In this document: one piece after another, positions 1,662 to 16,604 of the stretch
Position numbering within the stretch: the stretch's first letter is position 1
How the letters are laid out: each line of letters opens with the position of its first letter
Assembly (NCBI GenBank): GCA_902799075.1
Contig: CADBYZ010000012.1
Span: 1 to 37,382, forward strand
From: Oscillospiraceae bacterium
Lineage (GTDB): Bacteria > Bacillota > Clostridia > Oscillospirales > Oscillospiraceae
Length of the DNA stretch: 37,382 nt
Reading direction: 5' to 3'
Position numbers and translations under genes: made by a program
The notes under the pieces: generated by a model
What the model was told of the DNA's origin: nothing
Seen by the model: the letters and a program-made list of their open reading frames with translations, nothing else
Databases searched by the model: none

Positions 1662-1667
1662 AGCCGT

Positions 1668-3469: not shown

Positions 3470-3830
3470 CGTCCTCATCCTCGTCCTGTTTGATGTCCAG
3501 GGAGTTGATGACCTCGTTGATGTGCGCGCCGTACTCGATGCTGTGATCCAGCTCAAACACCAGCTCCGGCGTATAGCGCAGATCCAGCACGCTCCCGAGC
3601 TCACGACGGAGCCAGCCGGAGGCCGACTTGATACCGCGGCGAAATTCCTTTTCGTTCTGTAATCCCAGCACGGAAAGCCAGATCTTGCTATAGCGAAGGT
3701 CGCCGGTGGTCTCCACGCGCGTGACGCTGATCATGCCCTGCTGCACACGGGGATCCTTGATGTCCCGGAGCTTTGCCGAGACAACGCGTTGGATGTCGTC
3801 ATTGATTCTTGCGATTTTATTGGATGACAT
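3459..3830 (-). CDS. rbfA: 30S ribosome-binding factor RbfA
   Basis: A late 30S assembly factor that binds near the 16S rRNA 5' helix. It is 123 residues, the usual length, with a KH-type fold. Visible family motifs are RINDDIQRVVSAKLRDIKDPR and VETTGDLRYSKIWLSVLG (each about 20 residues). The C-terminus is acidic (DEDEDDG). The start is ATG 3830 behind GGAGAA. Upstream in-frame codons run through the promoter and were rejected. It is the first gene of the operon; the usual upstream partners nusA, ylxR, rplGA-like and infB are absent, and a divergent GH2 gene lies there instead. Confidence 0.93.
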   Translation of the reverse strand: MSSNKIARINDDIQRVVSAKLRDIKDPRVQQGMISVTRVETTGDLRYSKIWLSVLGLQNEKEFRRGIKSASGWLRRELGSVLDLRYTPELVFELDHSIEYGAHINEVINSLDIKQDEDEDDGL

Positions 3831-3912
3831 GTTGTATTCTCCAAACCATGGGCACCGTGTCGGGCGCCCGGTGTATTGTAAAGATCGGGTTATCGGTTCA
3901 CAGGCAGAGTTT

Positions 3913-3941
3913 ATTATAGCATGTAATGTTTCGTCCCGCAA
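3913..3941 (-). promoter_or_regulatory. Sigma-A type promoter of rbfA operon
   Basis: Reading the minus strand: TTGCGG (3936-3941), a 17-base spacer, then TATAAT (3913-3918). The start would be near 3906, giving a leader of about 75 bases to the rbfA ATG. Confidence 0.7.
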
Positions 3942-3999
3942 GTGGGAAAAGTCGGGCAAAATGTGTATCGAATGCGTTCTGTGTTTTTTATGCAGCATC

Positions 4000-4028
4000 T
4001 TGCAAAAAACATACTTTGCGGCTAAACT
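4000..4028 (+). promoter_or_regulatory. Probable promoter of the GH2 gene
   Basis: TTGCAA (4000-4005), 17-base spacer, TAAACT (4023-4028). It sits only about 15-20 bases before the ribosome site GGGAGGG (4039-4045) of the gene starting at 4051, so the leader would be very short. The -10 is a moderate match. Confidence 0.45.
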
Positions 4029-4050
4029 CTTATCAGATGGGAGGGATTCC

Positions 4051-5715
4051 ATGAATAAGCTGTACACAAGTGAAGGCCGCGCGCTTCCCGCGGTACCCTG
4101 GGAGCGTTATCCCAGACCCCAGATGGTGCGGAAGGAATGGCTGTGCCTCAACGGAGAATGGGAGCTGTTTTGTCACGGACGCTGTGGGACGATCCGCGTA
4201 CCCTTCTGTGCGGAGAGCCTGCTGTCCGGTTTGTCCGCGACGCCGGAGCCGGGGGAGGATTTCGTATATCGCCGCCGCTTTGCCGTGCCCGAAGGCTGGA
4301 CCGGAAAACGTATCCTTCTCCATTTCGGCGCGGTCATGCGCGAGGCGGAAGTAAGTCTGAACGGGAAAGTTCTGTACCGTCATGACAACGGCTATCTTCC
4401 TTTCACAGTCGACCTCACGGATGCTCTGCTGGCGGGAGAAAACGAAATCAATGTCCGCGTCGTGAATGATCTGGACCCGCACTATCCCTGGGGCAAGCAG
4501 AGCAAAAAGCGCGGCGGTATGTGGTACACGCCCTGTTCCGGCATCTGGCAAAGCGTGTGGCTTGAGCCTGTTCCGTCGGAGTATATTCGCTCCCTGCATA
4601 TTTTGACCGGCACTGACTGGGTCGAAATCTGCGCGGACGGTGTACAGGACGGCGTGGTGGAGCTTCTGGGAGAAACTTACACACTGAAAAACGGGAAGGT
4701 GCGGATCCCGCTTTCCGCCCCACATCTGTGGAGTCCGGAGGACCCGTTTCTCTATCGTTTCACCCTTGTCTCCGGCGAGGACCGTACAGCGTCCTATTTT
4801 GCGCTGCGTACGCTGACGGTTGAAACCGTACGCGGCATCTCCCGCCTGTGCCTGAACGGAAAGCCGTACTTTTTCAACGCGCTTCTTGATCAGGGCTATT
4901 GGAGCGACGGCCTGTACACCCCCGCCGATCCCGGCGCTTACGAGCGTGACATTATTGCCATGAAGTCCCTCGGCTTCAACACGCTGCGCAAACACATCAA
5001 AGTTGAGCCGGAGCAGTTTTACTATGACTGTGACCGCCTGGGTATGATCGTATTTCAGGACATGGTCAACAGCGGTGAATACCGTTTTCTTCGCGATACC
5101 GCGCTTCCCACCGTCGGTTTGCTCAGACGCCGGGATCATCGTCTGAACCCCGATCCCGGGACGCGTGAAAACTTCCTTGCTGCCATGGATGAAACGGTCC
5201 GGCAGCTGCGAAACCATCCCTGTATCGTTCTATGGACGATTTTCAACGAGGGCTGGGGGCAATTCTGCGCCGATGAAGCCTACACCCGCCTGAAGGCCCT
5301 CGACCCGAGCCGCTTTATCGACAGCAGCTCCGGCTGGTTCCATCAGGAGAAGAGTGACGTGGACAGCCTTCATATCTATTTCGGAAGGCTGCGTCTCGGC
5401 CGCCGGAAGCTGCCGCAGCTTCTCAGTGAGTTCGGCGGTTACGTCTGGAAGCTCCCGGAGCACAGCTTCAACCCCGCTCACACCTACGGCTACCGTATAT
5501 ACAAGACCCGGGAAGCCTATGTACAGGCTTTGCGTGCGCTCTATCAGTCACTGATCCCGCTGGTACGGCAGGGGCTTTGCGGCGCAGTATACACCCAGGT
5601 ATCGGACGTGGAGGATGAGACCAACGGTCTGTACACTTTTGACAGGGCGGTTTTGAAGCTGAAGCCCGAGGAACTGCGGGATATCGCCGCGCAGCTTTCC
5701 GACGCGATCCTATAA
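4051..5715 (+). CDS. Glycoside hydrolase family 2 enzyme (beta-galactosidase/glucuronidase type)
   Basis: A 554-residue GH2 enzyme without signal peptide, so probably cytoplasmic and acting on imported oligosaccharides or glycosides. Residues about 25-175 form the sugar-binding jelly roll (LNGEWELF, VSLNGKVLYRHDNGYLPF, PCSGIWQSVWLEP). Then comes a short Ig-like domain (about 180-260) and the TIM barrel from about 265. Catalytic residues are visible: the acid/base Glu in WTIFNEGWGQ (N399-E400) and the nucleophile in LLSEFGGY (E460). RKHIKVEPEQFYYDCDRLGM is the typical barrel strand. The start is ATG 4051 behind GGGAGGG; the long upstream extension crosses the promoter region and was rejected. 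It is short for the family, lacking the C-terminal domains of LacZ-like enzymes. It stands alone, divergent from rbfA, with no transporter or sugar regulator beside it, so the substrate cannot be told. Confidence 0.85.
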   Translation: MNKLYTSEGRALPAVPWERYPRPQMVRKEWLCLNGEWELFCHGRCGTIRVPFCAESLLSGLSATPEPGEDFVYRRRFAVPEGWTGKRILLHFGAVMREAEVSLNGKVLYRHDNGYLPFTVDLTDALLAGENEINVRVVNDLDPHYPWGKQSKKRGGMWYTPCSGIWQSVWLEPVPSEYIRSLHILTGTDWVEICADGVQDGVVELLGETYTLKNGKVRIPLSAPHLWSPEDPFLYRFTLVSGEDRTASYFALRTLTVETVRGISRLCLNGKPYFFNALLDQGYWSDGLYTPADPGAYERDIIAMKSLGFNTLRKHIKVEPEQFYYDCDRLGMIVFQDMVNSGEYRFLRDTALPTVGLLRRRDHRLNPDPGTRENFLAAMDETVRQLRNHPCIVLWTIFNEGWGQFCADEAYTRLKALDPSRFIDSSSGWFHQEKSDVDSLHIYFGRLRLGRRKLPQLLSEFGGYVWKLPEHSFNPAHTYGYRIYKTREAYVQALRALYQSLIPLVRQGLCGAVYTQVSDVEDETNGLYTFDRAVLKLKPEELRDIAAQLSDAIL

Positions 5716-5720
5716 ACTTG

Positions 5721-5750
5721 AACACCCCGCGGAACGCTCCGCGGGGTGTT
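5721..5750. terminator. Bidirectional hairpin between convergent genes
   Basis: A perfect 13-bp stem (5721-5733 with 5738-5750) and a four-base loop ACGC. It lies between the GH2 stop (5715, +) and the stop of the APC-GGDEF gene (5771, -). The T-tract is short on both sides, so it is likely used in both directions but is not a strong textbook terminator. Confidence 0.7.
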
Positions 5751-5770
5751 TGGAATAATATTGGCTCTGA

Positions 5771-8020
5771 TCAGGTCCCTGCCGGGGCGGCGAGAGCCAT
5801 CTGCTGCTTGAGCTGCTTTTTCCGCTCGTACATGCAGCGGTCCGCCTGCTCGAAAACGCGCAGCATGGAGTTGTGCTCGCCGGGAACGTATTCCGCCAGG
5901 CCTGCGGCAATGGAGTCACCTGCATGGGAGAGGTTGGATTCCGCCTGCTCGTCTATCATTGTAAGAAGCTCCCTGCAGTGGTCATAATCTTCACCCCGCA
6001 GAATGACGACAAATTCATCCCCGCCGTAACGGAACACCGGCGAATGGGAAAAGATCTTGCAGATGGAGTTGCAGGCGCGCCGTATGCATTCGTCACCCGC
6101 TATATGCCCCTGTACATCGTTAATCGCTTTCAGATCGTTGATATCGCAGACCACGATGGCGAAGGGCAGGCAGTCCCCGCTGTTGATCTGTTCGTCGATG
6201 TGCTCCTCCCACTGAGAAAAGGCACGCTTGTTCTTGACGCCTGTCAGGGCGTCGGTCAGGCCGGTCTCCCGCGCGGTGCCGAACTTTTCCTGCCATTCCT
6301 TTGCCTTGGTGTTCGCCGCGTTGTAGTTGTTGCCGAGAATGACGACGGCGACGATGAACATGACAAAGGAGGTCATGGTAGTGCGGATGTTCGCGTTTTC
6401 AATGCGATCCTCCTGCCCGGAGACGAAGGTCTCTGCCTCGTCCACCTGTACGCTCCCCTGCTCCACGCGCTCGGTGTAATAATCCTGGATGGACTGGATG
6501 GAATCCTCGGTGATGAGCTGGGTGTCGCGGCTTGTCCACATCATGCTGGTCAGCAGCATCAGCAGCAGGAGCACCACCCACACGACCACCGAGTGGCCGT
6601 AGCGGGCCTCGGTATCCCGCCTCAGAACCGACCGGAAGGCGATCATGCCCACCAGCGACCAGACGGCAAACAGCAGATAGGACTCCGGCTCCATGGCTTC
6701 GTAGGCGATAAGCTTCGGCGCCAAGAGCAGGACAATAACGCCGATCATCAGCGCCGTGCCCGCAGCGCCGGTCCATTTGGCGCTTTTGTCGCCGTGCCCG
6801 GCGGCATACAGCCACACAGAGTCCGAGAGCAGGCCGTAAATGATCGCGGCTCCGAGAGTCGTCACATCCACGATCCAGCCGATGGCGGTGCGCCCGAGAA
6901 ACGGGATCACGCAGGAAATCAGGACCACCACAAGGATGGCATGGCCGGGGATGCCGTATTTGTTCAGCTTCCCGAGCTTTCCGACCCACGTGTGCTCTCT
7001 GCCGAAGGAGAAGAGCAGGCGGCTGATGGCGGTGAGGTTGCCGATGATGCTCGTGATTATCACTGCGAGCAGGGACAGGATCATCACCGTGATCCCGGCG
7101 GAGCCCATATAGTACTCGGCCGCGTAAAATGCCGGAATACCCTTGATGCCCTCGATCTTATCCATGTCGCGGATATAGGCAAACCAGCTTTCGTACTCGG
7201 GCGGATAGGCGCTGACGGAGAGGATCGACATGAGCACATACACGAGCGTGGTCATGACCACCGAAGCGAGCATCACACCGTGTATCTTTTTGAGGGGGAA
7301 GTCGTATTCCTCGGAAAAATGTGCCACGTTTTCAAAGCCAACGAACGCCCACGGCGAGATGACCGCGATGCGCACGATCTGTCCCAGAGCCGAGCGGTCA
7401 GGCAGGAAGCCGGGTTCGTAGATAAAACCGCTCGCGCCGTGGCGGATGCAGGCGGCGGCGGTCGTCACGATCAGGCCGCCGACAAAGAAGCAGGCCAGCA
7501 CGATCATGATAAGCTGTGGGATGCGCTTGCTTCTGGCACACAGCAGCCCCACCAGGCCCACGGCTGCCATGGAGAGCAGCGCCTCGCCCAGATAGACCCT
7601 GTAGCCGAAAACAACATAGCTGAAGCCGAACTGGAACATCCTGCCGAAAATGCGCTGGGCAAAAAGCGGCATGGACGTGATGTTGGCCCACAGCACCGCA
7701 AGATAGGTCAGCAGCAGTAACCACGCGATCAGAAAGCCGATATCGTGGCCGCGCACCTGGCCGCCCCAGGCGTAGATGCCGCCCGCGCTCGGCGCGCGCT
7801 CCAGCATATAGCAGAGATTGTGGTTGATGATCAGGATGACAGCCATGCCGACCGCAAGGCCAAAGACGGTGCCGAGAATGCCCGCCTGGAACAGATAGGT
7901 ATTGCACGTCACGACGAAGGAGCCCCAGCCGATGCTGGTTCCGATCGAAAACGCCCATACGCCCGCGCGGCTGAAATACGGGCTCAGTCTGTTATCCTTT
8001 ATGTTTTGATTGCTGTCCAT
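5771..8020 (-). CDS. APC-family transporter-like protein fused to GGDEF diguanylate cyclase
   Basis: A 749-residue fusion. Residues about 15-405 form an amino acid-polyamine-organocation (APC, LeuT-fold) permease core. TM1 carries the unwound-helix motif IGTSIGWGSF, and a later segment reads SPWAFVGFENVAHFSEE. Extra helices follow at about 420-495, then an extracytoplasmic segment of about 50 residues (500-548) and one more TM (about 549-563). A short linker leads to GGDEF (about 588-735): TDALTGVKNKRAF opens the domain, D626 is in the metal region, and RYGGDEF (G666-F670) is intact. No RxxD inhibitory site is seen at the usual position before GGDEF. Predicted to make c-di-GMP under control of a membrane solute-sensing module. 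The start is ATG 8020; an alternative GTG at 8053 has no better ribosome site. It is the last gene of the operon, 158 bases after its paralogue. Confidence 0.85.
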   Translation of the reverse strand: MDSNQNIKDNRLSPYFSRAGVWAFSIGTSIGWGSFVVTCNTYLFQAGILGTVFGLAVGMAVILIINHNLCYMLERAPSAGGIYAWGGQVRGHDIGFLIAWLLLLTYLAVLWANITSMPLFAQRIFGRMFQFGFSYVVFGYRVYLGEALLSMAAVGLVGLLCARSKRIPQLIMIVLACFFVGGLIVTTAAACIRHGASGFIYEPGFLPDRSALGQIVRIAVISPWAFVGFENVAHFSEEYDFPLKKIHGVMLASVVMTTLVYVLMSILSVSAYPPEYESWFAYIRDMDKIEGIKGIPAFYAAEYYMGSAGITVMILSLLAVIITSIIGNLTAISRLLFSFGREHTWVGKLGKLNKYGIPGHAILVVVLISCVIPFLGRTAIGWIVDVTTLGAAIIYGLLSDSVWLYAAGHGDKSAKWTGAAGTALMIGVIVLLLAPKLIAYEAMEPESYLLFAVWSLVGMIAFRSVLRRDTEARYGHSVVVWVVLLLLMLLTSMMWTSRDTQLITEDSIQSIQDYYTERVEQGSVQVDEAETFVSGQEDRIENANIRTTMTSFVMFIVAVVILGNNYNAANTKAKEWQEKFGTARETGLTDALTGVKNKRAFSQWEEHIDEQINSGDCLPFAIVVCDINDLKAINDVQGHIAGDECIRRACNSICKIFSHSPVFRYGGDEFVVILRGEDYDHCRELLTMIDEQAESNLSHAGDSIAAGLAEYVPGEHNSMLRVFEQADRCMYERKKQLKQQMALAAPAGT

Positions 8021-8071
8021 TGGATCGAAGACGGCCTCTCTTTCAGGAAACACGAATCACGGAGCTTCTGT

Positions 8072-8084
8072 CAGGACTGTCCTG
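8072..8084. promoter_or_regulatory. 13-base palindrome in the gap between the two APC fusion genes
   Basis: CAGGAC-T-GTCCTG, a perfect inverted repeat in the 158-base gap 8021-8178. No sigma-A promoter and no T-tract on the minus strand were found there. It may be a small hairpin affecting mRNA processing or translation of the downstream cyclase gene, or chance. Confidence 0.3.
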
Positions 8085-8178
8085 TTTATTCAGGTCTTGC
8101 GCCGATGACGATATGCTGGTCATCGCCGCGGAAGTCAGTACCGTCGGGGCGGCGCACAGCATGATGCCCGCTTGGGGA

Positions 8179-11100
8179 TCATCGGATCATATTGGCGAGC
8201 GTCTCATACAGCCGCTCCGGCTCGACGGGCTTGCCCAGATGGGCGTTCATGCCCGCTTTCCGGGTGCTCTCCACATCCTCGTCGAAGACATTGGCGGTCA
8301 TAGCGATAATCGGGATCGTAGCCGCGTCCGGACGCTCGAGCGCGCGGATGGCCCTGGTTGCGGTGATGCCGTCCATGACCGGCATGCGCATGTCCATGAG
8401 GATCGCGTCATAATACCCGGCGGGATGCTTGCCGAACATCTCGAGGGCGACCGCGCCGTTTTCGGCGTGCTCGGTGAGCATGTCCTCGATCTCGAGAAGA
8501 TCCTGCAGGATCTCGGCGTTCTGCTCCACATCCTCCACGATGAGGACACGGTGCCCGGCAAGACTGTTCTCCTGTTCGGGCTCTTCCTCAATCTCGGCAG
8601 GCTCAGCGTCGGAGCGGTGCAGCAGCACATTATGGATCTGCTGCAGAAGGCTGTCGGCGAAGAGGGGCTTTGCGATGATACCGTCCACGCCGTCCTCGCG
8701 GGCCTCCTCGTCGATGATGTCCCAGTTGTAGCTTGTGAGCATGATGACGGCAGTCTCGCCTTCGTCAAAGGATCTCAGCTCCCTTGTAAGCTCCAGTCCG
8801 CTCATGCCGGGCATCTTGTAGTCGGTCAGCAGCAGGTCATAGCCGCGGCCCTTGGCATGCGCGTCGCGCAGGATGGCAAGGCCTTCTCTGCCGCTTGCGG
8901 TGGAATCTGCCGCGATGCCGATGGTCTGCAGCACGATCCTCGCATGCTCGCAGGCGATCTCGTCATCGTCCACCACCAGGGCGCGCAGGTTCTCCGGCAG
9001 GCTGATCCCCTGCGCCACATGCGCCCGGCGTTTGGATGCCTTGAGTGTGACGGTCACGGTGAAGACGGAGCCGACGCCTTTTTCGCTGTCGACATGGATG
9101 TCGCCGTTCATCATCTCGACGAAGTTCTTGGTGATGGCCATGCCGAGACCGCTGCCGCCGTAGCGGTTTGTGACGGTGGCGTTCTCCTGGGAGAATGCCT
9201 CGAAGAGCTTGGGGATGAATGCCTTGTCCATGCCGATACCGGTGTCACGCATGATAAAGCGCATGGTGCAGACATCGTCCTCGCGGGCGGTCTGCTCCAC
9301 GGTCAGGGTCACTTCGCCGGGGGCCTCGGTAAACTTGACGGAGTTTCCGAGGATATTGATGAGCACCTGCTTGAGCTTCATATCGTCGCCAAAGTAGTAG
9401 TCCCCTACATGGCCTACGATCTGGCACTCATAGCGCAGGCCCTTGTCCTGGCACTGGCCGTTGATGATGATATTGATCTGATCCAGAAATTCCCGGAAAG
9501 AAAACTCCTCGTTATTGAGCATCATGCGGCCGGACTCGATACGGCTCATGTCGAGGATGTCATTGATAAGGCCGAGCAGATGCTTCGCGCTGGCCCCGAT
9601 CTTTTCCAGCTGCTCCCTGGTCTGGGGCTGAAGGTTGGGGTTTCTCAGCGCGATATTGTCAAGGCCGATGATGGCGTTCATGGGGGTGCGGATCTCGTGG
9701 CTCATGTTGGAAAGGAAGCTGGTCTTGGCGCGGCTTGCCTCCTCGGCCAGGACCTTTTCCACCTCGATCTGTTTTTCCCGCTTCTGGATCTGGTGATAGA
9801 TGTCAAAGAGGATGATCAGAGCGAAGATGATGAGCACCATATGTATCGTGTCGCTTACGGTATGGGCCGCCTTGGCCTGTTCCAGAACCTCGCGCATGTA
9901 GTCCGCGCCGGGCTCATCCGCAGCGGGCATGCCGGCGTCAGTGAATTTCTCCGTATAGTAGTGCTGGATGGGCTCGACAGACCGGTCGATGGCGGCATCG
10001 GTCGTCTCGTTGGTCCAGACGCTGGAGGCGTAAATAATAAGCGCCAGGAGCACCACCCACACGATGACCGAGCGCCCGAAGCGGCGTTCGGTGTCTCTGC
10101 GGAAAACCCAGCGGAAAAAAACCATGCCCAGGATAGCCCAGGCGGCCAGGATGAAATAGGATTCCATCGAGAGCGTCTTCACATCCGTGAGGTTCGGGAT
10201 CAAAAACTCGGCCGCGAACAGGAGCGAAACGATAAAGCCCGCAAAGCCCGTCACGGTAAAGAGCTTGTTTTTCTCCCCGCGCGCGTTTTTCCAGGCCGCC
10301 GCAGAGGCATAGGCATAGGCGATGGTCGCGCCCACGGTGGTCACGTCCACGATCCAGCTGATGGCGGTCCTGCCGAAGAAGGGCAGCACCACGGACACCG
10401 CAAGGATCGAGAAGATTGCACGGCGCGGCACGCAGTTTTCATCGCACTCGCCGACCCAGCCGGGCAGCATCCCGTCATCCGAGATGGATTTGAGAAGTCT
10501 GCTCAGCGCGATGTAATTACCGATGAGCCCCGTAAAGATGCCGCAAAGCGCGGCTGTGCCAAGGATCAGCGTGCCGCCGTTTCCAAGTGCCCGATGGGCG
10601 GCATAGAAGGTAGGCTGGGAGGCAAGACCCGAGCGGTCGCCCAGAGAGGAGACATAGTCAAGCCAGCTTGCGCAGCCCTCGGGCAGCGCCGTCACCGCAA
10701 GAAGCACCAGCAGAATATACGCAAGCCCCGCCGTCACGACCGCGGCGCTCAGGATCACGAAGGAGCGCTTGAGCGGGAATTTGGCCTCCTCAGAGGAGTG
10801 GGAGATGGATTCAAAGCCCACGAAGGCCCAGGGTGTCAGGGCAAAAATTGTGAACACGCCGCCGAATTTGCTGTGCGTCGGCGCATAGCCGGGCTCAAAC
10901 ACAGCCCCCCGAGCGCCGACACGCGCCGCGGCAAAGCACACGACAACACCGCCGAAGAGCAGGATCGCCATGATGATCTGCGTTTTTTCACTGAGCTTTT
11001 TTTGCAGGCACAAAAGGGCCGCGATCAGCAGCGCCCCCGCCGCCAGCAGGATCTCCCCCATGTACACATGGTAGCCCGCGATCACATAGTGAAAGCCGAA

Positions 11101-11493
11101 CTGGAAGGTCGAGCCCAGGAGCGTGCGGGCGATCAGCGGCAGGGCGGTGGCATTTGCCCAGATGATGGCCACATAGGTGATGATCAGAAACCAGGCGCTC
11201 ACAAAGCCGTGATCGTAGCCGAAGCTGCGCTTGGTGAAGGTATAGGCGCCGCCGCAGCCGGGGAAACGGTTCATGAGATAGTGGTAGTTTGCCGCCAGCA
11301 GCAGCATGACCGCCGCGCCGAGGCCAAGACCGAGCGCGGTGCCCACCGGGCCCGCGATCGGCAGGAAGGTGTTGCCGGGCATGACAAAAGCGCCCCAGCC
11401 CACGGCACACCCGAAGGCCAGCGCCCACGCGCCGAGCGGTGTCAGGTACGCGCAGACCCGGCGGTCTTCATGGTTTCGTTCTTCTGTGCTCAT
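8179..11493 (-). CDS. APC-family transporter-like hybrid histidine kinase (APC-HisKA-HATPase-REC-REC)
   Basis: A 1104-residue multidomain sensor. Residues about 15-405 are an APC/LeuT-fold permease core with the TM1 motif FGCAVGWGAF. Further helices follow (410-495), then an extracytoplasmic segment (about 496-548), a TM (about 550-567) and a coiled coil (568-590). HisKA follows with SHEIRTPMNAIIG, phospho-acceptor H599. HATPase_c has the N-box region NILGNSVKF, G1 DTGIGM and G2 GGSGLGM (750-785). Receiver 1 has VVDDDE with acceptor D891 (LLTDYKMPG). Receiver 2 has IVEDVE with acceptor D1034 (LMDMRMPVMDG). All catalytic residues look intact. The N-terminal 560 residues are clearly paralogous to the APC-GGDEF protein downstream, for example FQFGF-YV--GY-VY-GE, TAI-WIVDVTT-GA, and RRDTE-R-G-SV-VWVVLL. 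It starts at ATG 11493, 26 bases after the HPt gene. The logic resembles CbrA, an SLC5 transporter-kinase, but with a different transporter family. Substrate and whether it still transports are unknown. Confidence 0.87.
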   Translation of the reverse strand: MSTEERNHEDRRVCAYLTPLGAWALAFGCAVGWGAFVMPGNTFLPIAGPVGTALGLGLGAAVMLLLAANYHYLMNRFPGCGGAYTFTKRSFGYDHGFVSAWFLIITYVAIIWANATALPLIARTLLGSTFQFGFHYVIAGYHVYMGEILLAAGALLIAALLCLQKKLSEKTQIIMAILLFGGVVVCFAAARVGARGAVFEPGYAPTHSKFGGVFTIFALTPWAFVGFESISHSSEEAKFPLKRSFVILSAAVVTAGLAYILLVLLAVTALPEGCASWLDYVSSLGDRSGLASQPTFYAAHRALGNGGTLILGTAALCGIFTGLIGNYIALSRLLKSISDDGMLPGWVGECDENCVPRRAIFSILAVSVVLPFFGRTAISWIVDVTTVGATIAYAYASAAAWKNARGEKNKLFTVTGFAGFIVSLLFAAEFLIPNLTDVKTLSMESYFILAAWAILGMVFFRWVFRRDTERRFGRSVIVWVVLLALIIYASSVWTNETTDAAIDRSVEPIQHYYTEKFTDAGMPAADEPGADYMREVLEQAKAAHTVSDTIHMVLIIFALIILFDIYHQIQKREKQIEVEKVLAEEASRAKTSFLSNMSHEIRTPMNAIIGLDNIALRNPNLQPQTREQLEKIGASAKHLLGLINDILDMSRIESGRMMLNNEEFSFREFLDQINIIINGQCQDKGLRYECQIVGHVGDYYFGDDMKLKQVLINILGNSVKFTEAPGEVTLTVEQTAREDDVCTMRFIMRDTGIGMDKAFIPKLFEAFSQENATVTNRYGGSGLGMAITKNFVEMMNGDIHVDSEKGVGSVFTVTVTLKASKRRAHVAQGISLPENLRALVVDDDEIACEHARIVLQTIGIAADSTASGREGLAILRDAHAKGRGYDLLLTDYKMPGMSGLELTRELRSFDEGETAVIMLTSYNWDIIDEEAREDGVDGIIAKPLFADSLLQQIHNVLLHRSDAEPAEIEEEPEQENSLAGHRVLIVEDVEQNAEILQDLLEIEDMLTEHAENGAVALEMFGKHPAGYYDAILMDMRMPVMDGITATRAIRALERPDAATIPIIAMTANVFDEDVESTRKAGMNAHLGKPVEPERLYETLANMIR

Positions 11494-11519
11494 TTATGCA
11501 ACGGCTCCTTTTCGAGTAA

Positions 11520-11888
11520 TCAGCCCTCTTCGTACTGACGGATACCCGCTGAGATTTTGCTGTACATTTCCTCGATTTTATTGAGCTTTTCGCCGACCTC
11601 CGCGTCGGAAAGCATGCGGGCGTTTCCGGGGCGAAATTCCTCAGTGATCTCTGCCGCCGCGTCCGAAAGCGCCGTGAGGCCGAGATTGGCGCTCACGCCC
11701 TTGACCGCGTGGGCTGTCTCGAAAAGTGCGGTGGGATCCATGGTCTTTCCGGCGGCAAGCATTGTATCCACCACGCCGTTTTTCGGGAATTTGCGGATGT
11801 GCTTGTCGATCAGCTTTTCGATATGCAGCACGCGCAGCGCCTGGTCATAGTCGCCGCCGATGTTCTGATAGAGTTCCTGTAATGTCAT
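11520..11888 (-). CDS. Stand-alone HPt phosphotransfer protein
   Basis: A 122-residue soluble helical-bundle protein that shuttles phosphate between receiver domains. The HPt signature TAHAVKGVSANLGL is present with acceptor H60. The rest is the expected amphipathic helices, with a family-like C-terminal helix (KLNKIEEMYSKISAG). The start is ATG 11888 (MTLQELYQN) behind AGAAAGGA; a TTG three codons upstream overlaps the previous stop and is less likely. The gene lies between the REC-EAL gene and the APC-kinase gene. Both hybrid kinases in the operon end in receivers, so HPt is the obvious link to the receiver of the EAL protein. Confidence 0.88.
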   Translation of the reverse strand: MTLQELYQNIGGDYDQALRVLHIEKLIDKHIRKFPKNGVVDTMLAAGKTMDPTALFETAHAVKGVSANLGLTALSDAAAEITEEFRPGNARMLSDAEVGEKLNKIEEMYSKISAGIRQYEEG

Positions 11889-11893
11889 CTGAA

Positions 11894-13588
11894 TCAATTC
11901 CTTTCTATGGCGAGTTCTTTCTCGATCAGCTTTTCAAAATCCTCGCTCGGCAGCGGACGAGAGAAGTAGTAGCCCTGTACCAGGTCGCATTTCCCTTTGC
12001 TCAGGATCTCCAGCTGCTTCTCGGTCTCCACGCCCTCGGCCACCACCGACACCTTGAGGTAGCGGGCGATATCCAGGATCAGCGATACCAGGCGGCGGTC
12101 AGTCTCACTCTTCTCGATGTTGCGAACGAATTTCATGTCCATCTTCAACACATCAATGGGCATGTCCGACAGCATGTTCAGGGACGAGTAACCGGAGCCG
12201 AAGTCGTCCATCTCGACCTCAAAGCCCTTGCTCCGAAGGCCGCTTATCACATCCAGCACCTGCTTTGCGTTGTCCGTGTAGGCAGACTCCGTAACCTCGA
12301 GCTTGAGGTCCTTGTAGCTCAGGCCGTTGTCCAGGATCAGGAGGTCAAGCCTGTCCATCAGCGCGGGATCGAACACGTCCGAGCGGGACAGGTTCACGGA
12401 CACCGGCAGCGTAAAGTTGTATTTTTCCTTCCAGCGGGCGATCTGCTTTGCCGCCTCCTGCCAGACGAAGTTGTCCACCACGCCGATAAGGCCGTTGCCC
12501 TCAAAGAGCGGGACAAAGCTGCCGGGTGAGATCATGCCGAGGTCGGGGTGCTTCCAGCGGATGAGCGCCTCAGCGCTCGAAAGGCGGGGCGGGTAGACCT
12601 GGATGTTGTACTTGGGCTGGTAGTAGACCTGGAACTGCCTCTCCTCTACCGCGGGACGCAGGTCATTGAGCAGGCGGCTGTTGAGCAGTTCCCGCATGCG
12701 CATGTCCTCATCGTAGATCATGATGGGATTCTGATAATCCCCGCGGACCATGTTGCAGGCGGTGTGCGCCTGGTCAAAGAGCAGGATGGGCTCCACATCC
12801 TCACTCCATGGCTTGATGCCCATGCGCAGGTGGATATTGGTGCTCGGTGAGAGGCTGTTTACCTTCTCCTGGAAGCGGTTGAGCAGCGCGCGGTAATCCG
12901 GCTGGTGCGGGCAGTAGATATCAAAGCGGTCCGACTCGATGCGGCTGGCGATGCCCTCGGTCTCGCCGAGGAAGGCGCGGATCTCGTTGCCGATGAGGCG
13001 CAGGACATCGTCGCCGAAGTCGCGGCCGTTGAGGGCGTTGATGGTATGGAACTGCTCGATGTTCATGACGATGGCGTCCAGGTGAAGCTCCGGATGGTAA
13101 TGATAGAGGCGGTTTGCGTATTCAAAGAAGAAGCTGCGGCTGTAGAGCATGGTGAGCCGGTCATGCTCGGCAGCGGAGATGAGCTGACGGCCTTCGCTCA
13201 GCTCGATGATCCTGCCCACGCGGGCGAGGATGACCTCCGGCATGTCAAAGGGCTTGGTGATGAAATCCGCCGCTCCCATCTGCAAAGCCTGCAGCTCGGC
13301 GCTCTTTTCGGCGGTCAGCACGATGATGGGGATGTGCTTTAGCTGCTCGTCGTCCCGGACGATCTCCATCACTTCAAAGCCGTTCATCACCGGCATCATC
13401 AGATCCAGCAGCACCAGCGACAGCTCGTTTGTGTGCTCGCGCATCCGGTCAACGGCCTCTTTGCCGTTTTCGGCGTATAGAATCTCATAGTCATCCTCCA
13501 GGATGATCCCCAGAGAGTCACGGTTGATTTCCTGATCGTCAACCACCAATACAAGCTTTGGCCGCTGCATCTGTGTCGATTCAATCAA
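11894..13588 (-). CDS. Response regulator REC-(degenerate GGDEF)-EAL, predicted c-di-GMP phosphodiesterase
   Basis: A 564-residue protein. REC (about 9-125) has VVDDQE, acceptor D62 (LLDLMMPVMNG) and K112. A GGDEF-like domain (about 140-295) has a broken active site: ESDRF (218-222) replaces GGDEF, so no cyclase activity is expected. EAL (about 300-560) looks complete: EAL at E340-L342, N399 (SVNLSR), E431/E434 (EVTES), DDFGSGYSS (461-469), K482, E518 (VAEGVE) and Q538 (VQGYYF). It should hydrolyse c-di-GMP to pGpG when phosphorylated. The start is a TTG at 13588 with a strong AAAGGAGG eight bases upstream, overlapping the kinase stop codon by eight bases. The next ATG (13570) is too far from that site, and a longer TTG start at 13618 reads through the ribosome site. 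Confidence 0.88.
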   Translation of the reverse strand: MIESTQMQRPKLVLVVDDQEINRDSLGIILEDDYEILYAENGKEAVDRMREHTNELSLVLLDLMMPVMNGFEVMEIVRDDEQLKHIPIIVLTAEKSAELQALQMGAADFITKPFDMPEVILARVGRIIELSEGRQLISAAEHDRLTMLYSRSFFFEYANRLYHYHPELHLDAIVMNIEQFHTINALNGRDFGDDVLRLIGNEIRAFLGETEGIASRIESDRFDIYCPHQPDYRALLNRFQEKVNSLSPSTNIHLRMGIKPWSEDVEPILLFDQAHTACNMVRGDYQNPIMIYDEDMRMRELLNSRLLNDLRPAVEERQFQVYYQPKYNIQVYPPRLSSAEALIRWKHPDLGMISPGSFVPLFEGNGLIGVVDNFVWQEAAKQIARWKEKYNFTLPVSVNLSRSDVFDPALMDRLDLLILDNGLSYKDLKLEVTESAYTDNAKQVLDVISGLRSKGFEVEMDDFGSGYSSLNMLSDMPIDVLKMDMKFVRNIEKSETDRRLVSLILDIARYLKVSVVAEGVETEKQLEILSKGKCDLVQGYYFSRPLPSEDFEKLIEKELAIERN

Positions 13589-15167
13589 GGCAGGGGCCTC
13601 CTTTCTTCTTTTGGGCAATTGAGATCCATTGTTTCAGGGTATTATACAGAAGCTCCGCATCCACAGGCTTGGCAAGGTGCGCGTTCATACCCGCAGCCCT
13701 GGTGGCCTCCACGTCGCTTGGAAGGGCGTTTGCCGTCAGAGCCAGGATGGGGATATTCTTTGCGTCCTCGCGCTGTAGCGCCCTGATCTGCCGGGCAGAC
13801 TCGAGCCCGTCCATGATCGGCATGCGCAAATCCATGAGAATCGCGTCATAATACCACGGCGCGGAAGCCTTGATCTTGTCGACGGCTTCCCGGCCGTTTT
13901 CGGCGCGGTCGCTCTCCGCGTCCTCCAGCTCCAGAAGATCCGCTACGATCTCGGCATTGAGATCCATATCCTCCACGATCAGAATGCGTTTGCCCGCAAG
14001 GCTGACCTGTGGTGTCTCCTGCTGCTCGGCGGGCAGCGTTTCCCTCACGTGCGGGCAGCCCGCGCAATTGGCGCACATCTCGCTCTGGTCGGGCACACAT
14101 CCGTCGCAGCTGGCACTCACATCGCCTCCGACGGATAAAAGCGGCAGTCTGACCGTAAAGGTGGAGCCCTCCCCCTTCCGGCTTTCCACTTCAATCGTTC
14201 CGCCCATACGCCTGACAATGCTGTTTGCCGCGCTCAGTCCCATGCCGCTGCCGCCGAAGCGGTTGGTAAAGCTCTGGTCCTCCTGGGTCAGGGGCTGGAA
14301 GATTTTCGACAGGAATTCATCGTCGATGCCGATGCCCGTGTCTGAGATGACAAAGCGCAAGCAGGTATACGCGTCCTGTTCCCGCTCGTACATGACGCAA
14401 AAGCGCACGGTGCCCGGCGCGTCCGTAAACTTCACGGCGTTATCCAGGATGCACATGAGCGCGCGTTCGATCGCGCTTTTGTCTCCGGCGTAATCGCGGT
14501 TTGCGCATTTGGAAAAGGAGAACTGGAAGTTCAGGCCCTTCTGTGCGCACAGAAAGGAGATCTGGGCACAGATCTGGTCCAGGACCTCCTTGAGCGAGAA
14601 GCGCTCCTCCCTTGTGACAGCATCGTCGTTTTTTTCCTGCTGAAAGGTCAGGATGTTCTCAAGCAGTTCGGCGAGATGTCTTGCGCTGACCCCGATCTTC
14701 ACCAGCTGGTCACGCGTCTCGGCGGGCAGCTCGGGATTCTTGAGAGCCAGGGTGTCCAGACCCAGGATCATGTTCATGGGAGTCAGCATCTCATGGCTCA
14801 TGCTGGCAAGGAAGGCGGCCTTGCTGCGGCTTGTCTCCTCGGCTGCCATAAGCTTCGCCTCCATCTGCTCATTTTCCAGGATGCGGTTGGTGATGCTGTT
14901 GATGAGCCAGTACATGACGGACACGAACACGCTGCCGAAAAACAGGATGCCCGCGACGATCAGATCCGGCTTTCCGAAGATGCCGACAAACAGATAGCCC
15001 AGAAGAAAGAAGACCAGCAGGACGATGGGGATGTACAGGATGCGTCCCTTGTTTCCCCAGTTTTTCATGCTCTGCATGCGGCGGGCAAAGCTGACAAAGC
15101 CGCAGATGTTGTATACCATCAAAATGCTTCCCAGATATACCAGGCTGTAGATTATCCACTTGATCAT
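13581..15167 (-). CDS. Membrane hybrid histidine kinase (3 TM-HisKA-HATPase-Cys linker-REC)
   Basis: A 528-residue kinase, first gene of the operon. Three TM helices (about 3-24, 43-62, 66-90) with almost no extracytoplasmic loops lead to a coiled coil (95-118). HisKA has SHEMLTPMNMILG, acceptor H125. HATPase_c has ILDNAVKF, DTGIGID and FGGSGMGL. Between the ATPase and the receiver (residues 345-392) lies a linker with five cysteines, C354, C357, C365, C368 and C371 (CX2C-X7-CX2CX2C), suggesting metal or redox binding. REC has IVEDMD and acceptor D446 (LMDLRMPIMDG). The start is ATG 15167 with AAAGGAGG six to seven bases upstream. An in-frame extension to 15245 runs through a terminator hairpin and has no ribosome site. 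With no large sensor loop, the input may come through the membrane, the cysteine linker, or partner proteins. Confidence 0.87.
   Translation of the reverse strand: MIKWIIYSLVYLGSILMVYNICGFVSFARRMQSMKNWGNKGRILYIPIVLLVFFLLGYLFVGIFGKPDLIVAGILFFGSVFVSVMYWLINSITNRILENEQMEAKLMAAEETSRSKAAFLASMSHEMLTPMNMILGLDTLALKNPELPAETRDQLVKIGVSARHLAELLENILTFQQEKNDDAVTREERFSLKEVLDQICAQISFLCAQKGLNFQFSFSKCANRDYAGDKSAIERALMCILDNAVKFTDAPGTVRFCVMYEREQDAYTCLRFVISDTGIGIDDEFLSKIFQPLTQEDQSFTNRFGGSGMGLSAANSIVRRMGGTIEVESRKGEGSTFTVRLPLLSVGGDVSASCDGCVPDQSEMCANCAGCPHVRETLPAEQQETPQVSLAGKRILIVEDMDLNAEIVADLLELEDAESDRAENGREAVDKIKASAPWYYDAILMDLRMPIMDGLESARQIRALQREDAKNIPILALTANALPSDVEATRAAGMNAHLAKPVDAELLYNTLKQWISIAQKKKGGPCLD
13597..13604 (-). 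promoter_or_regulatory. Ribosome binding site that fixes a TTG start
   Basis: AAAGGAGG on the minus strand lies inside the end of the upstream kinase gene and eight bases before TTG 13588. It decides the start of the REC-EAL gene and shows tight translational coupling of the first two genes of the operon. Confidence 0.7.
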
Positions 15168-15182
15168 GGCTGACCTCCTTTC

Positions 15183-15206
15183 AAAAAAAGCAGCCTGAAA
15201 GCTGCT
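15183..15206 (-). terminator. Attenuator-like hairpin immediately before the kinase ribosome site
   Basis: On the minus strand: AGCAGC, loop TTTCAG, GCTGCT, then seven T. The T-tract ends three bases before the AAGGAGG ribosome site of the gene starting at 15167. An intrinsic terminator in the 5' leader, rather than after a gene, points to conditional read-through. Confidence 0.6.
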
Positions 15207-15283
15207 CGGTTTGTCGGGGCACAGGGTGGGTATCAGGATTGCCATATTCTGTAAATATAATCTTCTGATTTTCCTATTAATGC
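15207..15283 (-). ncRNA. Structured 5' leader of the signalling operon (possible riboswitch or attenuator)
   Basis: From the predicted start near 15283 to the terminator hairpin. Two nested helices can be drawn on the minus-strand RNA: AUCAG (15265-15269) with CUGAU (15232-15236), enclosing AUAUU/AAUAU (15254-15258 with 15244-15248) with loop UACAG. A C-rich single strand follows to the terminator. No match to c-di-GMP-I/II, preQ1, fluoride, guanidine or ZTP consensus was recognised by eye. No antiterminator pairing with the terminator arm was found, so regulation is inference. Confidence 0.35.
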
Positions 15284-15289
15284 TATTAT

Positions 15290-15318
15290 ATCATACCACA
15301 GAGCGCTTCGGTTTTCAA
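15290..15318 (-). promoter_or_regulatory. Sigma-A type promoter of the signalling operon
   Basis: Minus strand TTGAAA (15313-15318), 17-base spacer, TATGAT (15290-15295), overlapping a second -10-like TATAAT just downstream. It is the only good promoter found for the five genes down to 5771. Confidence 0.7.
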
Positions 15319-15400
15319 TAGCTTCCTCTTTTTCCTGATATAGCAAAAACGGATTATTTTCAGCTTTCCCTCTCCGTTTTGCGCTGTAAGGCTGAGACTC

Positions 15401-15475
15401 TGTCATGCTGAGCGCAGCGAAGAATCGTTCGTTCCGCCAAGCCCGGAGAAAGATCCTTCGCTGACGCTCAGGTCG
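15401..15475. repeat. Palindromic interspersed repeat, copy 1 (degenerate)
   Basis: Left arm TGTCATGCTGAGCGCAGCGA (15401-15420, continuing AGAATC) and right arm GATCCTTCGCTGACGCTCAGG (about 15452-15472) are imperfect inverted copies. The same arm occurs in the element at 25537-25677. It is a MITE-like or REP-like non-coding element lying just downstream of the aminotransferase stop (15483), where it may act as a 3' hairpin. A small open frame over it (15233-15481, -) is repeat translation, not a gene. Confidence 0.65.
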
Positions 15476-15482
15476 GCCCATA

Positions 15483-16604
15483 TTATCCCTTACCGCCGCA
15501 CAGCTCTCCGACGGCGGCGCAGCAGGCTTTCACATCCTCGTGTTTGACGAAGGGGGAAAAGCTCATGCGCAGGGTGCCGGTATCGAGCGTCCCGGCGCTG
15601 CGGTGCGCAAGGGGCGCGCAGTGGAGCCCGCTTCTCAGGCAGATCCCGCGCTCGGACAGGAGCCGGGCCGCCTCGTCACAGTCGCGGCCCCGGATGCGCA
15701 GGGAGAGGACGCCGCTCTGCGTGCCCTCCGGTCCGGTGAAAGTTTCGACTCCTTCCATTCCCCGAAGCGCGGAAACGGCATCGTGAAGAAGTGTCTGCTC
15801 CGTGTGCTTGATCTTGGGTATGCCCTGCTTAGAGACATATTCCATACCCGCCAGCAGCCCTGCAATACCGGGCACATTGTGTGTCCCGGCCTCCAGCCGG
15901 TCGGGCAGATAGTCCGGCATCAGCTGCAGAAGGCTGTCGGAGCCGGAGCCGCCGGCGAGCAGCGGCTCTCCCCTCTCCCCGCACAGAAGCAGCCCCGTCC
16001 CCTGCGGACCGAGCAGGCCCTTGTGCCCGGGCATGGCGACAAACGCCGCGCCGAGCTCCATGAAATCCACCGGGAGCACGCCTGCCGCCTGGGAGGCGTC
16101 CACGATCAGCGGTACGCCCCGGCTTTTGCACAGGGCCGCGATTTCGTACACAGGCAGGATGAAGCCGAAGACATTGGAGACCATGGTGCACACCGCGAGC
16201 TCTGCGCCTCTGATACGTTCCTCAAAAGCCCGCAGGCAGGCAGCCTGATCGAAAAGCGGCGACGCGGCGACGATGATCTCCGCGCCCAGGGCCTTGAGCG
16301 GACGGGTGACGGCGTTGTGCTCATAGCCGGAGATCAGCACCTTTGTTCCCGGCTTTGCAAGGGAGCGTATGGCGATATTCAGGCCGTGGGTGGCATTCAT
16401 GGTGAAAACGACATCCGCGGGGTCCGGGACATTGAAAAGCGCCGCCGCCTTTTCGCGGCAGCGGTAGACCAGCCGGGATGCACGCATGGCGGCCTCGTGG
16501 CCTCCGCGTCCGGGGCTTGCGCAGGTCTGCATGGCCCGTACCATGGCGCGGGCAACCGCCGGGGGCTTTATGAGCGTTGTGGCGGCATTATCGAGATAGA
16601 TCAT
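15483..16604 (-). CDS. Cysteine desulfurase-family aminotransferase class V
   Basis: A PLP enzyme of the NifS/SufS-like superfamily, 373 residues from ATG 16604 (MIYLDNAATT). ATG 16610 is also possible but is only three bases from GGGAGG. The Schiff-base lysine is in MPGHKGLLGPQGTG (K195), VDASQAAG holds the PLP-nitrogen aspartate, and the C-terminal active-site loop cysteine is in RSGLHCAPLAH (C329). This fits the subgroup of class V enzymes found next to small Se/S-carrier-like proteins, as here (16588-16851, overlapping by 17-23 bases). The likely role is mobilising sulfur or selenium from cysteine/selenocysteine. No SufU, IscU, selD or molybdenum hydroxylase gene is in the window, so the acceptor pathway is open. 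Confidence 0.85.
   Translation of the reverse strand: MIYLDNAATTLIKPPAVARAMVRAMQTCASPGRGGHEAAMRASRLVYRCREKAAALFNVPDPADVVFTMNATHGLNIAIRSLAKPGTKVLISGYEHNAVTRPLKALGAEIIVAASPLFDQAACLRAFEERIRGAELAVCTMVSNVFGFILPVYEIAALCKSRGVPLIVDASQAAGVLPVDFMELGAAFVAMPGHKGLLGPQGTGLLLCGERGEPLLAGGSGSDSLLQLMPDYLPDRLEAGTHNVPGIAGLLAGMEYVSKQGIPKIKHTEQTLLHDAVSALRGMEGVETFTGPEGTQSGVLSLRIRGRDCDEAARLLSERGICLRSGLHCAPLAHRSAGTLDTGTLRMSFSPFVKHEDVKACCAAVGELCGGKG

What the first reader, a model, noticed from the sequence alone, without database searches (positions are those of the whole stretch)
5771..15318. A complete c-di-GMP phosphorelay with transporter-type receptors in one operon
Five co-directional genes from one promoter encode a hybrid kinase, a REC-EAL phosphodiesterase, a free HPt, an APC-type hybrid kinase with two receivers, and an APC-type diguanylate cyclase. 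All catalytic residues except the GGDEF of the EAL protein look intact. Known APC, HisKA, REC, HPt, GGDEF and EAL functions imply solute sensing linked to c-di-GMP turnover; the wiring itself is inference. I know of no described system with this set.
Basis: partly seen in the sequence, partly recalled or inferred. Interest (0 to 1): 0.88.

Follow-up and report, generated by a model that had tools for sequence, protein, structure and literature searches.

The report
Permease-derived receptors driving c-di-GMP relay
A gut bacterium's operon joins receptors that look like former amino-acid transporters to a phosphate relay and to enzymes that make and destroy the signal c-di-GMP; the receptors belong to a family that seems to have left transport genes once and then swapped its signalling ends several times.

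Summary
The five genes are real and arranged as described, with corrected start codons. The set recurs: B-C-D (REC-EAL phosphodiesterase, HPt, permease-type hybrid kinase) in 18 loci, 15 with A directly upstream. Phosphotransfer and EAL residues checked are kept wherever the domain is present, with two single-locus exceptions; the GGDEF of B is degenerate in 18 of 18. A GGDEF gene follows D in 10 of 13 loci with readable sequence there. The window once held a sixth gene, F (APC-GGDEF-REC-GGDEF-EAL), between D and E; a 47-base remnant remains. In a tree, 55 fused APC domains lie across a 100/99 branch from 17 stand-alone permeases, with changes of output among them. The 48 long-linker fusions share a TM3/TM6 signature (W-A 48/48, E 48/48, H 46/48; 0/17 stand-alone). 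Best reading: a permease-derived receptor family senses a small solute and drives both a phosphorelay to a c-di-GMP phosphodiesterase and a direct cyclase. Ligand, transport ability, response sign and wiring are inference; parts of the block also occur apart. Precedents: Roc (HPt to REC-EAL), CbrA, yeast Ssy1.

The parts
15290..15318 (-). promoter-like site TTGAAA-17-TATGAT
   Evidence: 10 of 12, same site and spacing in G027 and G485
13581..15167 (-). gene A: membrane hybrid histidine kinase (about 3 predicted TM helices, HisKA-HATPase-REC)
   Evidence: Pfam; His, N, G1 and receiver residues invariant in 15 of 15, G2-box position S in 14 and T in 1; hydropathy; start from relatives. ORF as listed runs to 15245
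11894..13570 (-). gene B: REC-GGDEF(degenerate)-EAL, predicted phosphorylation-controlled c-di-GMP phosphodiesterase
   Evidence: Pfam; REC and EAL residues invariant in 18 of 18, GGDEF motif lost in 18 of 18. ORF as listed runs to 13618
11520..11888 (-). gene C: free HPt protein, 122 aa
   Evidence: Pfam; His, Lys, Gly invariant in 18 of 18. ORF as listed runs to 11897
8179..11493 (-). gene D: APC permease fold, 2-TM hairpin linker, HisKA-HATPase, REC1, REC2
   Evidence: Pfam; model of residues 1-600 (pLDDT 84); Foldseek AdiC TMt 0.79-0.81 among the top rows
8080..8126 (-). scar of deleted gene F (last codons and stop of APC-GGDEF-REC-GGDEF-EAL)
   Evidence: blastn 91.5% over 47 bases to L034, E 1.6e-12
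5771..8020 (-). gene E: APC permease fold, 2-TM hairpin linker, intact GGDEF; no RxxD at the I-site position (motif recalled)
   Evidence: Pfam; model (pLDDT 86); Foldseek AdiC TMt 0.84; motif. ORF as listed runs to 8053
11155..11160 (-). D receptor signature W112-A113 in TM3
10798..10812 (-). D receptor signature E228...H232 in TM6
7685..7690 (-). E receptor signature W122-A123 in TM3 (numbering from 8053)
7319..7333 (-). E receptor signature E241...H245 in TM6 (numbering from 8053)

Best explanation
The operon encodes a nutrient-type sensing unit that sets c-di-GMP from two sides. D and E carry the same receptor module: an APC (amino acid-polyamine-organocation) permease fold followed by a 2-TM helical hairpin and a signalling helix. 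The module binds a small, probably amino-acid-like solute, and its change of shape is passed through the hairpin. In D this controls autophosphorylation; phosphate goes from the D histidine to a D receiver (probably REC2), to the HPt protein C, and to the receiver of B, whose EAL domain hydrolyses c-di-GMP. A, a second hybrid kinase, feeds the same HPt with a different input. In E the same kind of receptor controls a GGDEF cyclase directly. Shown here: domains, conserved residues, conserved order, grouping of the fused APC domains, receptor-specific signature, predicted fold, loss of F. Inferred: ligand class, signal transmission, the phosphate path, enzyme activities and the sign of the response.
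For: B-C-D in 18 loci, A upstream in 15. Catalytic residues kept wherever the domain is present, apart from one receiver acid (G044), one G2-box change in A (G480) and one unreliable column (G472). GGDEF of B lost in 18/18 while EAL is kept in 18/18. A GGDEF gene lies downstream of D in the same direction in 10 of 13 loci with readable sequence, of three architectures, so a cyclase at that position seems favoured rather than one protein. The separate short-linker APC-kinase branch also lies near a REC-GGDEF-EAL gene in 6 of 12 loci read (G051, G040, G458, G462, G476, G091). All 17 genus genomes with B-C-D carry 7-20 EAL matches; of the other 85 only G470 (13), G031 (10) and G052 (6) have more than 4. 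Fused APC domains lie across one 100/99 branch. TM3 W-A 48/48, TM6 E 48/48 and H 46/48 in long-linker fusions against 0/17 stand-alone. APC fold in both models. PilZ in 8 of 102 genus genomes, all EAL-rich; the one PilZ protein checked (G031) is a PilZ-glycosyltransferase.
Against: No ligand, transport, phosphotransfer or c-di-GMP measurement exists. The terminal receivers of A and D are alike (mean 62%, n 14), but receivers of 10 hybrid kinases outside the A-D set are nearly as close (43-63%), so C may serve other kinases. The parts also occur apart: A-C-D without B (G404), B-C without D (G470) and A-C alone (G052); HPt with REC-GGDEF-EAL and no APC receptor in G038:C69 and G475:C66. Distance correlations among A-D (r 0.83-0.94) had no unrelated control gene. 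G000 has no PilZ hit, though it is about 76% complete. The c-di-GMP-I riboswitch search found none, but its control did not ring. In CbrA, the nearest bacterial precedent, histidine did not significantly change kinase activity in vitro (abstract PMC7096432).
Confidence: 0.6

Rival explanations
1. D and E are still working transporters: the APC part imports a solute and the flux or transport cycle, not mere binding, is read by the output domain (true transceptors, as for CbrA).
For: TM1 G-W-G, TM3 N and TM10 D are shared with most or all stand-alone permeases examined (W 16/17, N 14/17, D 17/17); CbrA takes up histidine and its kinase domain is not needed for it (abstract of PMC7096432).
Against: Fused and stand-alone domains differ by fixed residues in TM3, TM6, TM8 and TM10, helices that line the site in LeuT-fold carriers (recalled), as expected if the fused form changed its job or ligand.
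Confidence: 0.3
2. The genes sit together, but the relay is mixed: C collects phosphate from many hybrid kinases and delivers it to other receivers, and B is controlled elsewhere.
For: 1 to 4 HPt matches in each of the 17 genus genomes with B-C-D, more than one in 16; similar receivers on other hybrid kinases; G404, G470 and G052 keep only parts of the block; the membrane part of A is found away from the block in G044 and in G031, G470 and G052, which lack it.
Against: B and C are neighbours in the same direction in 18 of 18 B-C-D loci and also in G470 without D, which points to a fixed pair.
Confidence: 0.25
3. The APC part is only a membrane anchor and dimer scaffold with no ligand.
For: At least one fused form carries a PAS domain between linker and output (L047), which could be the real sensor there.
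Against: Invariant or near-invariant polar and aromatic residues in TM3 and TM6 across classes of the phylum and different outputs are not expected of an anchor.
Confidence: 0.1

Closest known systems
CbrA / CrbS / RpuS (SLC5-STAC histidine kinases)
   Same: A LeuT-fold transporter domain fused to a (hybrid) histidine kinase; CbrA binds and transports histidine (abstract PMC7096432; abstract and passages PMC13022988; passages PMC9100948).
   Different: SLC5 family with 13 TM helices and a STAC domain, with CbrA acting on a sigma-54-dependent transcription factor and RpuS paired with a LuxR-family regulator; here an APC-type permease with a 2-TM hairpin, only about 25 residues between TM14 and HisKA in D, and c-di-GMP enzymes as predicted outputs.
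Roc network of Pseudomonas (RocS4-HptA-RocR3; RocR)
   Same: Hybrid kinase, free HPt and REC-EAL protein; HptA interacts with RocS4 and with the receiver of RocR3 in two-hybrid tests (passages PMC12051241).
   Different: Sensors have SBP_bac_3 periplasmic domains, genes lie in different loci, RocR3's activity may be compromised, and no permease-type receptor or linked cyclase is mentioned in the passages seen.
Ssy1 of Saccharomyces cerevisiae
   Same: An APC-family amino acid permease turned receptor; its conformations are proposed to signal (abstract in listing; passages PMC12958826).
   Different: Eukaryotic; signals through Ptr3 and Ssy5, not by a fused enzyme.
5TMR / S-component transceptors
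   Same: Transporter fold used as receptor and combined with HK, PAS, GGDEF and EAL domains (abstract and passages PMC11109136).
   Different: Different fold (ECF S-component), found by structure comparison.

Membership tests
Multistep phosphorelay ending in a REC-EAL phosphodiesterase (Roc-like) | hybrid kinase with intact His, N and G1 boxes and terminal receiver | tested here: met
   A 15/15; D His in 16 and N/G1 in 17 of 18 (G294 truncated; G472 split and joined in the script, so its His column is not reliable)
Multistep phosphorelay ending in a REC-EAL phosphodiesterase (Roc-like) | free HPt with HxxKG | tested here: met
   18/18
Multistep phosphorelay ending in a REC-EAL phosphodiesterase (Roc-like) | response regulator with intact REC and EAL catalytic residues | tested here: met
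   18/18
Multistep phosphorelay ending in a REC-EAL phosphodiesterase (Roc-like) | phosphotransfer A/D to C to B | not testable with these tools
   needs purified proteins
APC amino acid permease family | sequence and fold of APC (AA_permease) | tested here: met
   Pfam; bacterial CAT homologue chains 5oqt/6f34 by profile; AdiC, LAT1 and 5oqt/6f34 by Foldseek
APC amino acid permease family | transport of a substrate | not testable with these tools
   needs uptake assay
SLC5-STAC transceptor kinases | SLC5 domain | tested here: not met
   Pfam gives only amino acid permease families for the membrane part
SLC5-STAC transceptor kinases | STAC four-helix domain between carrier and kinase | tested here: not met
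   in D TM14 ends near residue 563 and HisKA begins at 589, too short for it; linker is a 2-TM hairpin in the models. Whether Pfam holds a STAC model was not checked
Active diguanylate cyclase (E) | GGDEF motif | tested here: met
   RYGGDEF
Active diguanylate cyclase (B) | GGDEF motif | tested here: not met
   SDRFD in the window, degenerate in 18/18

The most novel reading that the evidence does not exclude
A bacterial receptor family arose once from APC amino-acid permeases by gaining a 2-TM hairpin and an output domain. It then exchanged outputs (kinase, cyclase, cyclase-phosphodiesterase, kinase again) while keeping one binding site, so that a single solute sets c-di-GMP synthesis and breakdown through parallel enzymes in one operon, with exopolysaccharide synthesis by a PilZ-glycosyltransferase as one likely target.
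Probability: 0.45. Interest if true: 0.78.

Novelty: new variant of a known kind. Interest (0 to 1): 0.62.

Why it matters
Bacterial proteins in which a transporter fold became a signalling receptor are rare as experimental cases (CbrA is called rare in PMC13022988). A whole family with stand-alone permease relatives, a fixed signature in the core helices and several outputs makes the step from transporter to receptor testable by swapping residues and domains. It also gives a candidate route by which rumen and gut Bacillota couple small nutrients to c-di-GMP; the one search made on rumen c-di-GMP signalling (8 of 42 papers listed) showed no such route.

Tried and rejected
Leader RNA: Rfam found nothing up to E 5 in 15100-15600. 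The leader hairpin before A is seen only in the closest relatives G027 and G485 (by eye), so it is not counted as part of the system. c-di-GMP-I riboswitch: 0 of 20 genomes, but no control genome rang, so uninformative.

Same-partner evidence from receiver similarity (A-REC with D-REC2, mean 62%) was rejected as specific evidence, because 10 other terminal receivers score 43-63%. Distance correlations among A-D lack an unrelated control gene and carry little weight.

G000:C89 (F with a broken start, HPt and REC) was first read as a second module of the same genome. It is 97.4% identical to G053, whose D is only about 47% identical to the window's, so it may be a misbinned contig or recent transfer and is not used as evidence for this genome.

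A first count of '11 of 14' loci with a GGDEF gene behind D included G056, where only 95 residues of an APC gene are seen before the contig ends; it is now 10 of 13 with G056 set aside. 'HPt beside D in 18 of 19' was recounted as 17 of 18 in the genus, with the cases outside told apart. 

Plasmid search with D: the 10 rows shown of at least 5000 matched the kinase part only; 0 records covered 80% of the query. Gene neighbours of six of the seven near stand-alone permeases (L083 not read; only part of the neighbours tested): relatives of polysaccharide or cell-wall genes in 5 of 6 (L125, L126, L127, L128, L130), in L127 and L128 by the ATP-grasp family PF14397 alone. A weak hint about the substrate, not used in the argument. 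Literature: 10 searches in an open-access library; long hit lists were shown in part; subscription papers are not covered.
Full report
Comparison with relatives and spacing move the likely starts to 15167 (A), 13570 (B), 11888 (C), 11493 (D) and 8020 (E). The gaps between A, B, C and D are then 10, 5 and 26 bases. A promoter-like site lies upstream of A at 15318-15290, scoring 10 of 12. Of 14 loci scanned, 13 have a 9- or 10-of-12 site upstream of A, but single sites are often within chance; L044 has none and L046 was not scanned.

The window is a contig of a 2.4 Mb, about 76% complete genome.

Conservation. I searched 99 relatives with E (60 match at E 0.001), then with the APC plus linker part of D 394 order genomes (25 match at 1e-30), 102 genus genomes (33 at 1e-100) and 398 phylum genomes (8 at 1e-60). 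I read at least one matching neighbourhood in each of the 33 genus genomes and most of the stronger ones outside (annotated in 20, 28, 33, 37, 50, 96). B-C-D occurs together in 18 loci: the window, 16 other genus genomes and G294 of another family. A stands directly upstream in 15 of the 18; G053, G483 and G044 lack it there, and only G044 has a relative of A's membrane part elsewhere.

The exceptions are told as well. The paralogue G048:C10 has D without B or C. G404 of another family has A-C-D with no B between. G470 has B-C without D behind it, and G052 has A-C with neither B nor D. G439 has a D-type gene with no HPt beside it. G035 has only one receiver in D, and G472 has D split in two frames. 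HPt with REC-GGDEF-EAL also occurs without an APC receptor, in G038:C69 and, with hybrid kinases, in G475:C66. So the HPt to REC-EAL pair is a wider module, and the APC receptor is one way into it.

Residues (all 18 B-C-D loci). In A: His, N, G1, and receiver D, D, T, K in 15 of 15; the checked G2-box position is S in 14 and T in 1. In B: receiver residues and all eight EAL positions checked in 18 of 18, while the GGDEF signature is degenerate in 18 of 18 (E replaced by R 11, Q 3, S 2, H 1, L 1). In C: His, Lys, Gly in 18 of 18. In D: the checked residues are present where the domain is present, except one receiver acid (N in G044) and the His column of G472, where I had joined the halves; G294, G483 and G035 lack parts of D. 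So B looks like a receiver-controlled phosphodiesterase and not a cyclase.

The last position. Of the 18 loci, four have no sequence beyond D (G038, G483, G294, G044), and in G056 only the first 95 residues of an APC gene are seen. Of the 13 left, a GGDEF gene follows D in the same direction in 10: E in the window; F in G027, G485 and G048; an APC-less membrane GGDEF protein of about 460-490 aa in G475, G484, G480 and G053, and after a PAS-kinase and receiver in G482 and G060. G035, G015 and G472 have none. F is APC-linker-GGDEF-REC-GGDEF-EAL, about 1445 aa. In G027 and G485 the order is A-B-C-D-F-E, with E of G485 split in two frames. In the window the D-E spacer holds 47 bases matching the last codons and stop of F (91.5%, E 1.6e-12), so the window lineage lost F.

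The receptor. Both models show the APC fold followed by two long helices, TM13 with an outer part and an outer part with TM14 and the signalling helix (E: helices 488-531 and 537-598, mean pLDDT 86; D: 476-519 and 528-598, pLDDT 84; TM placement by hydropathy). Foldseek gives AdiC, LAT1-type carriers and a bacterial CAT homologue (TMt up to 0.84). A tree of 72 APC domains (those of at least 330 matched residues in the loci chosen) puts 55 fused ones on one side of a branch with support 100/99 and all 17 stand-alone ones on the other. Within the fused set, 22 rows (E, F and kin) form a 100/100 group in which two rows (L049, L052) carry a kinase. HK needs 4 changes, GGDEF 5 and GGDEF-EAL 3 on the tree, so outputs have been exchanged. 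The root is by midpoint only, and one origin is not ruled out rather than proved.

Eleven positions are fixed differently in 29 long-linker fused and 7 near stand-alone domains (two short-linker rows were left out of that count). On the wider set, TM3 W-A is 48 of 48 and TM6 E 48 of 48 and H 46 of 48 in long-linker fusions including five of other classes, against 0 of 17 stand-alone. The TM8 N and TM10 T-T hold less widely. The seven short-linker kinases have F-L in TM3 and F at the H position (E in 6 of 7), so they lack most of the signature; yet 6 of 12 short-linker APC-kinase loci read lie near a REC-GGDEF-EAL gene (G051, G040, G458, G462, G476, G091; not G465, G058, G466, G052, G357, G111), and G462 has an HPt there too. 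That these helices line the substrate site in LeuT-fold carriers is recalled, not computed here. A fixed change of this kind across different outputs argues for one kind of ligand and a changed job, not for a dead anchor.

Cell context. Of 102 genus genomes, 53 have an EAL match. The 17 with B-C-D have 7 to 20; among the other 85 only G470 (13, which holds B-C), G031 (10) and G052 (6, which holds A-C) exceed 4. PilZ occurs in 8 of 102, all among the EAL-rich genomes, six of them B-C-D carriers; the window's genome shows none. The one PilZ protein examined (G031) is PilZ fused to a family-2 glycosyltransferase, so exopolysaccharide synthesis is a likely output in relatives.

Mechanism. From established knowledge of hybrid kinases and HPt proteins, phosphate should pass from D (and from A) through C to the receiver of B. 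The Roc network gives the precedent: RocS4 and HptA interact, and HptA with RocR3, a REC-EAL protein (passages of PMC12051241). From CbrA (abstract of PMC7096432; abstract and passages of PMC13022988) and Ssy1 (passages of PMC12958826), a carrier fold can serve as sensor, though in CbrA histidine did not significantly change the kinase activity measured. The combination proposed is: solute bound by D sets phosphate flow and thus c-di-GMP breakdown; solute bound by E sets c-di-GMP synthesis. The sign of each response is unknown. E has no RxxD at the inhibition-site position (sequence; the motif is recalled), which would suit a cyclase ruled by its receptor.

Against this reading: nothing has been measured; receivers of other hybrid kinases are nearly as similar to those of A and D; 16 of 17 B-C-D genomes of the genus hold more than one HPt match; parts of the block occur apart. 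The co-inheritance correlations have no control. The second F copy on G000:C89 may be a misbinned contig.

Novelty. In the open-access library I found no paper on APC-type permeases fused to kinases or GGDEF domains (of only 12 of 52 papers were listed); the mentions of amino acid permease in PMC11109136 are in its reference list. The parts are known kinds; the permease-derived receptor family with exchangeable outputs, tied to a conserved HPt-EAL relay, is a new variant.

Noticed in passing
window 8080-8126: Remnant of the 3' end of gene F between D and E shows a deletion in this lineage.
   Followed up: yes
L037 (G000:C89) 781-5921: F gene with a broken start, followed by HPt and a single receiver; 97.4% identical to G053, so perhaps a misbinned contig or recent transfer.
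   Followed up: partly
L159 7286-9375; L166 980-9798: HPt with REC-GGDEF-EAL (and hybrid kinases in L166) without any APC receptor: the relay module is wider than the APC system.
   Followed up: partly
L162 3929-9411: Short-linker APC-kinase between a REC-GGDEF-EAL gene and a small HPt gene, outside the A-D block.
   Followed up: no
L146 4506-9405; L147 396-5382: Two tandem APC-kinase fusions with divergent kinase domains in each of two genomes of the same phylum outside the class.
   Followed up: partly
L125, L127, L128: Three of six stand-alone relatives of the permease lie near a sugar-transfer-associated ATP-grasp gene (PF14397), a hint that the carrier serves surface-polymer assembly.
   Followed up: partly
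L035 9986-12229: An E-type APC-GGDEF gene in a MAG labelled Anaerolineaceae; mislabelled contig or transfer.
   Followed up: no
L034 10019-12376: E of RUG14036 (G485) is split over two frames at its GGDEF domain.
   Followed up: no
window 13581-15167: A's N-terminus has about three predicted TM helices with a conserved YLGSxLMVYN-like motif and no outer domain; the same module occurs on another kinase (L057 13409-14935).
   Followed up: partly
L047 6659-10159; L049 5928-10148: APC domains joined to GGDEF (with a PAS domain) or to a kinase through long middle regions; the kinase one lies inside the cyclase group of the tree.
   Followed up: partly
window 15380-15460: A spacer sequence upstream of the operon that looks like a dispersed repeat; read by eye only.
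   Followed up: no
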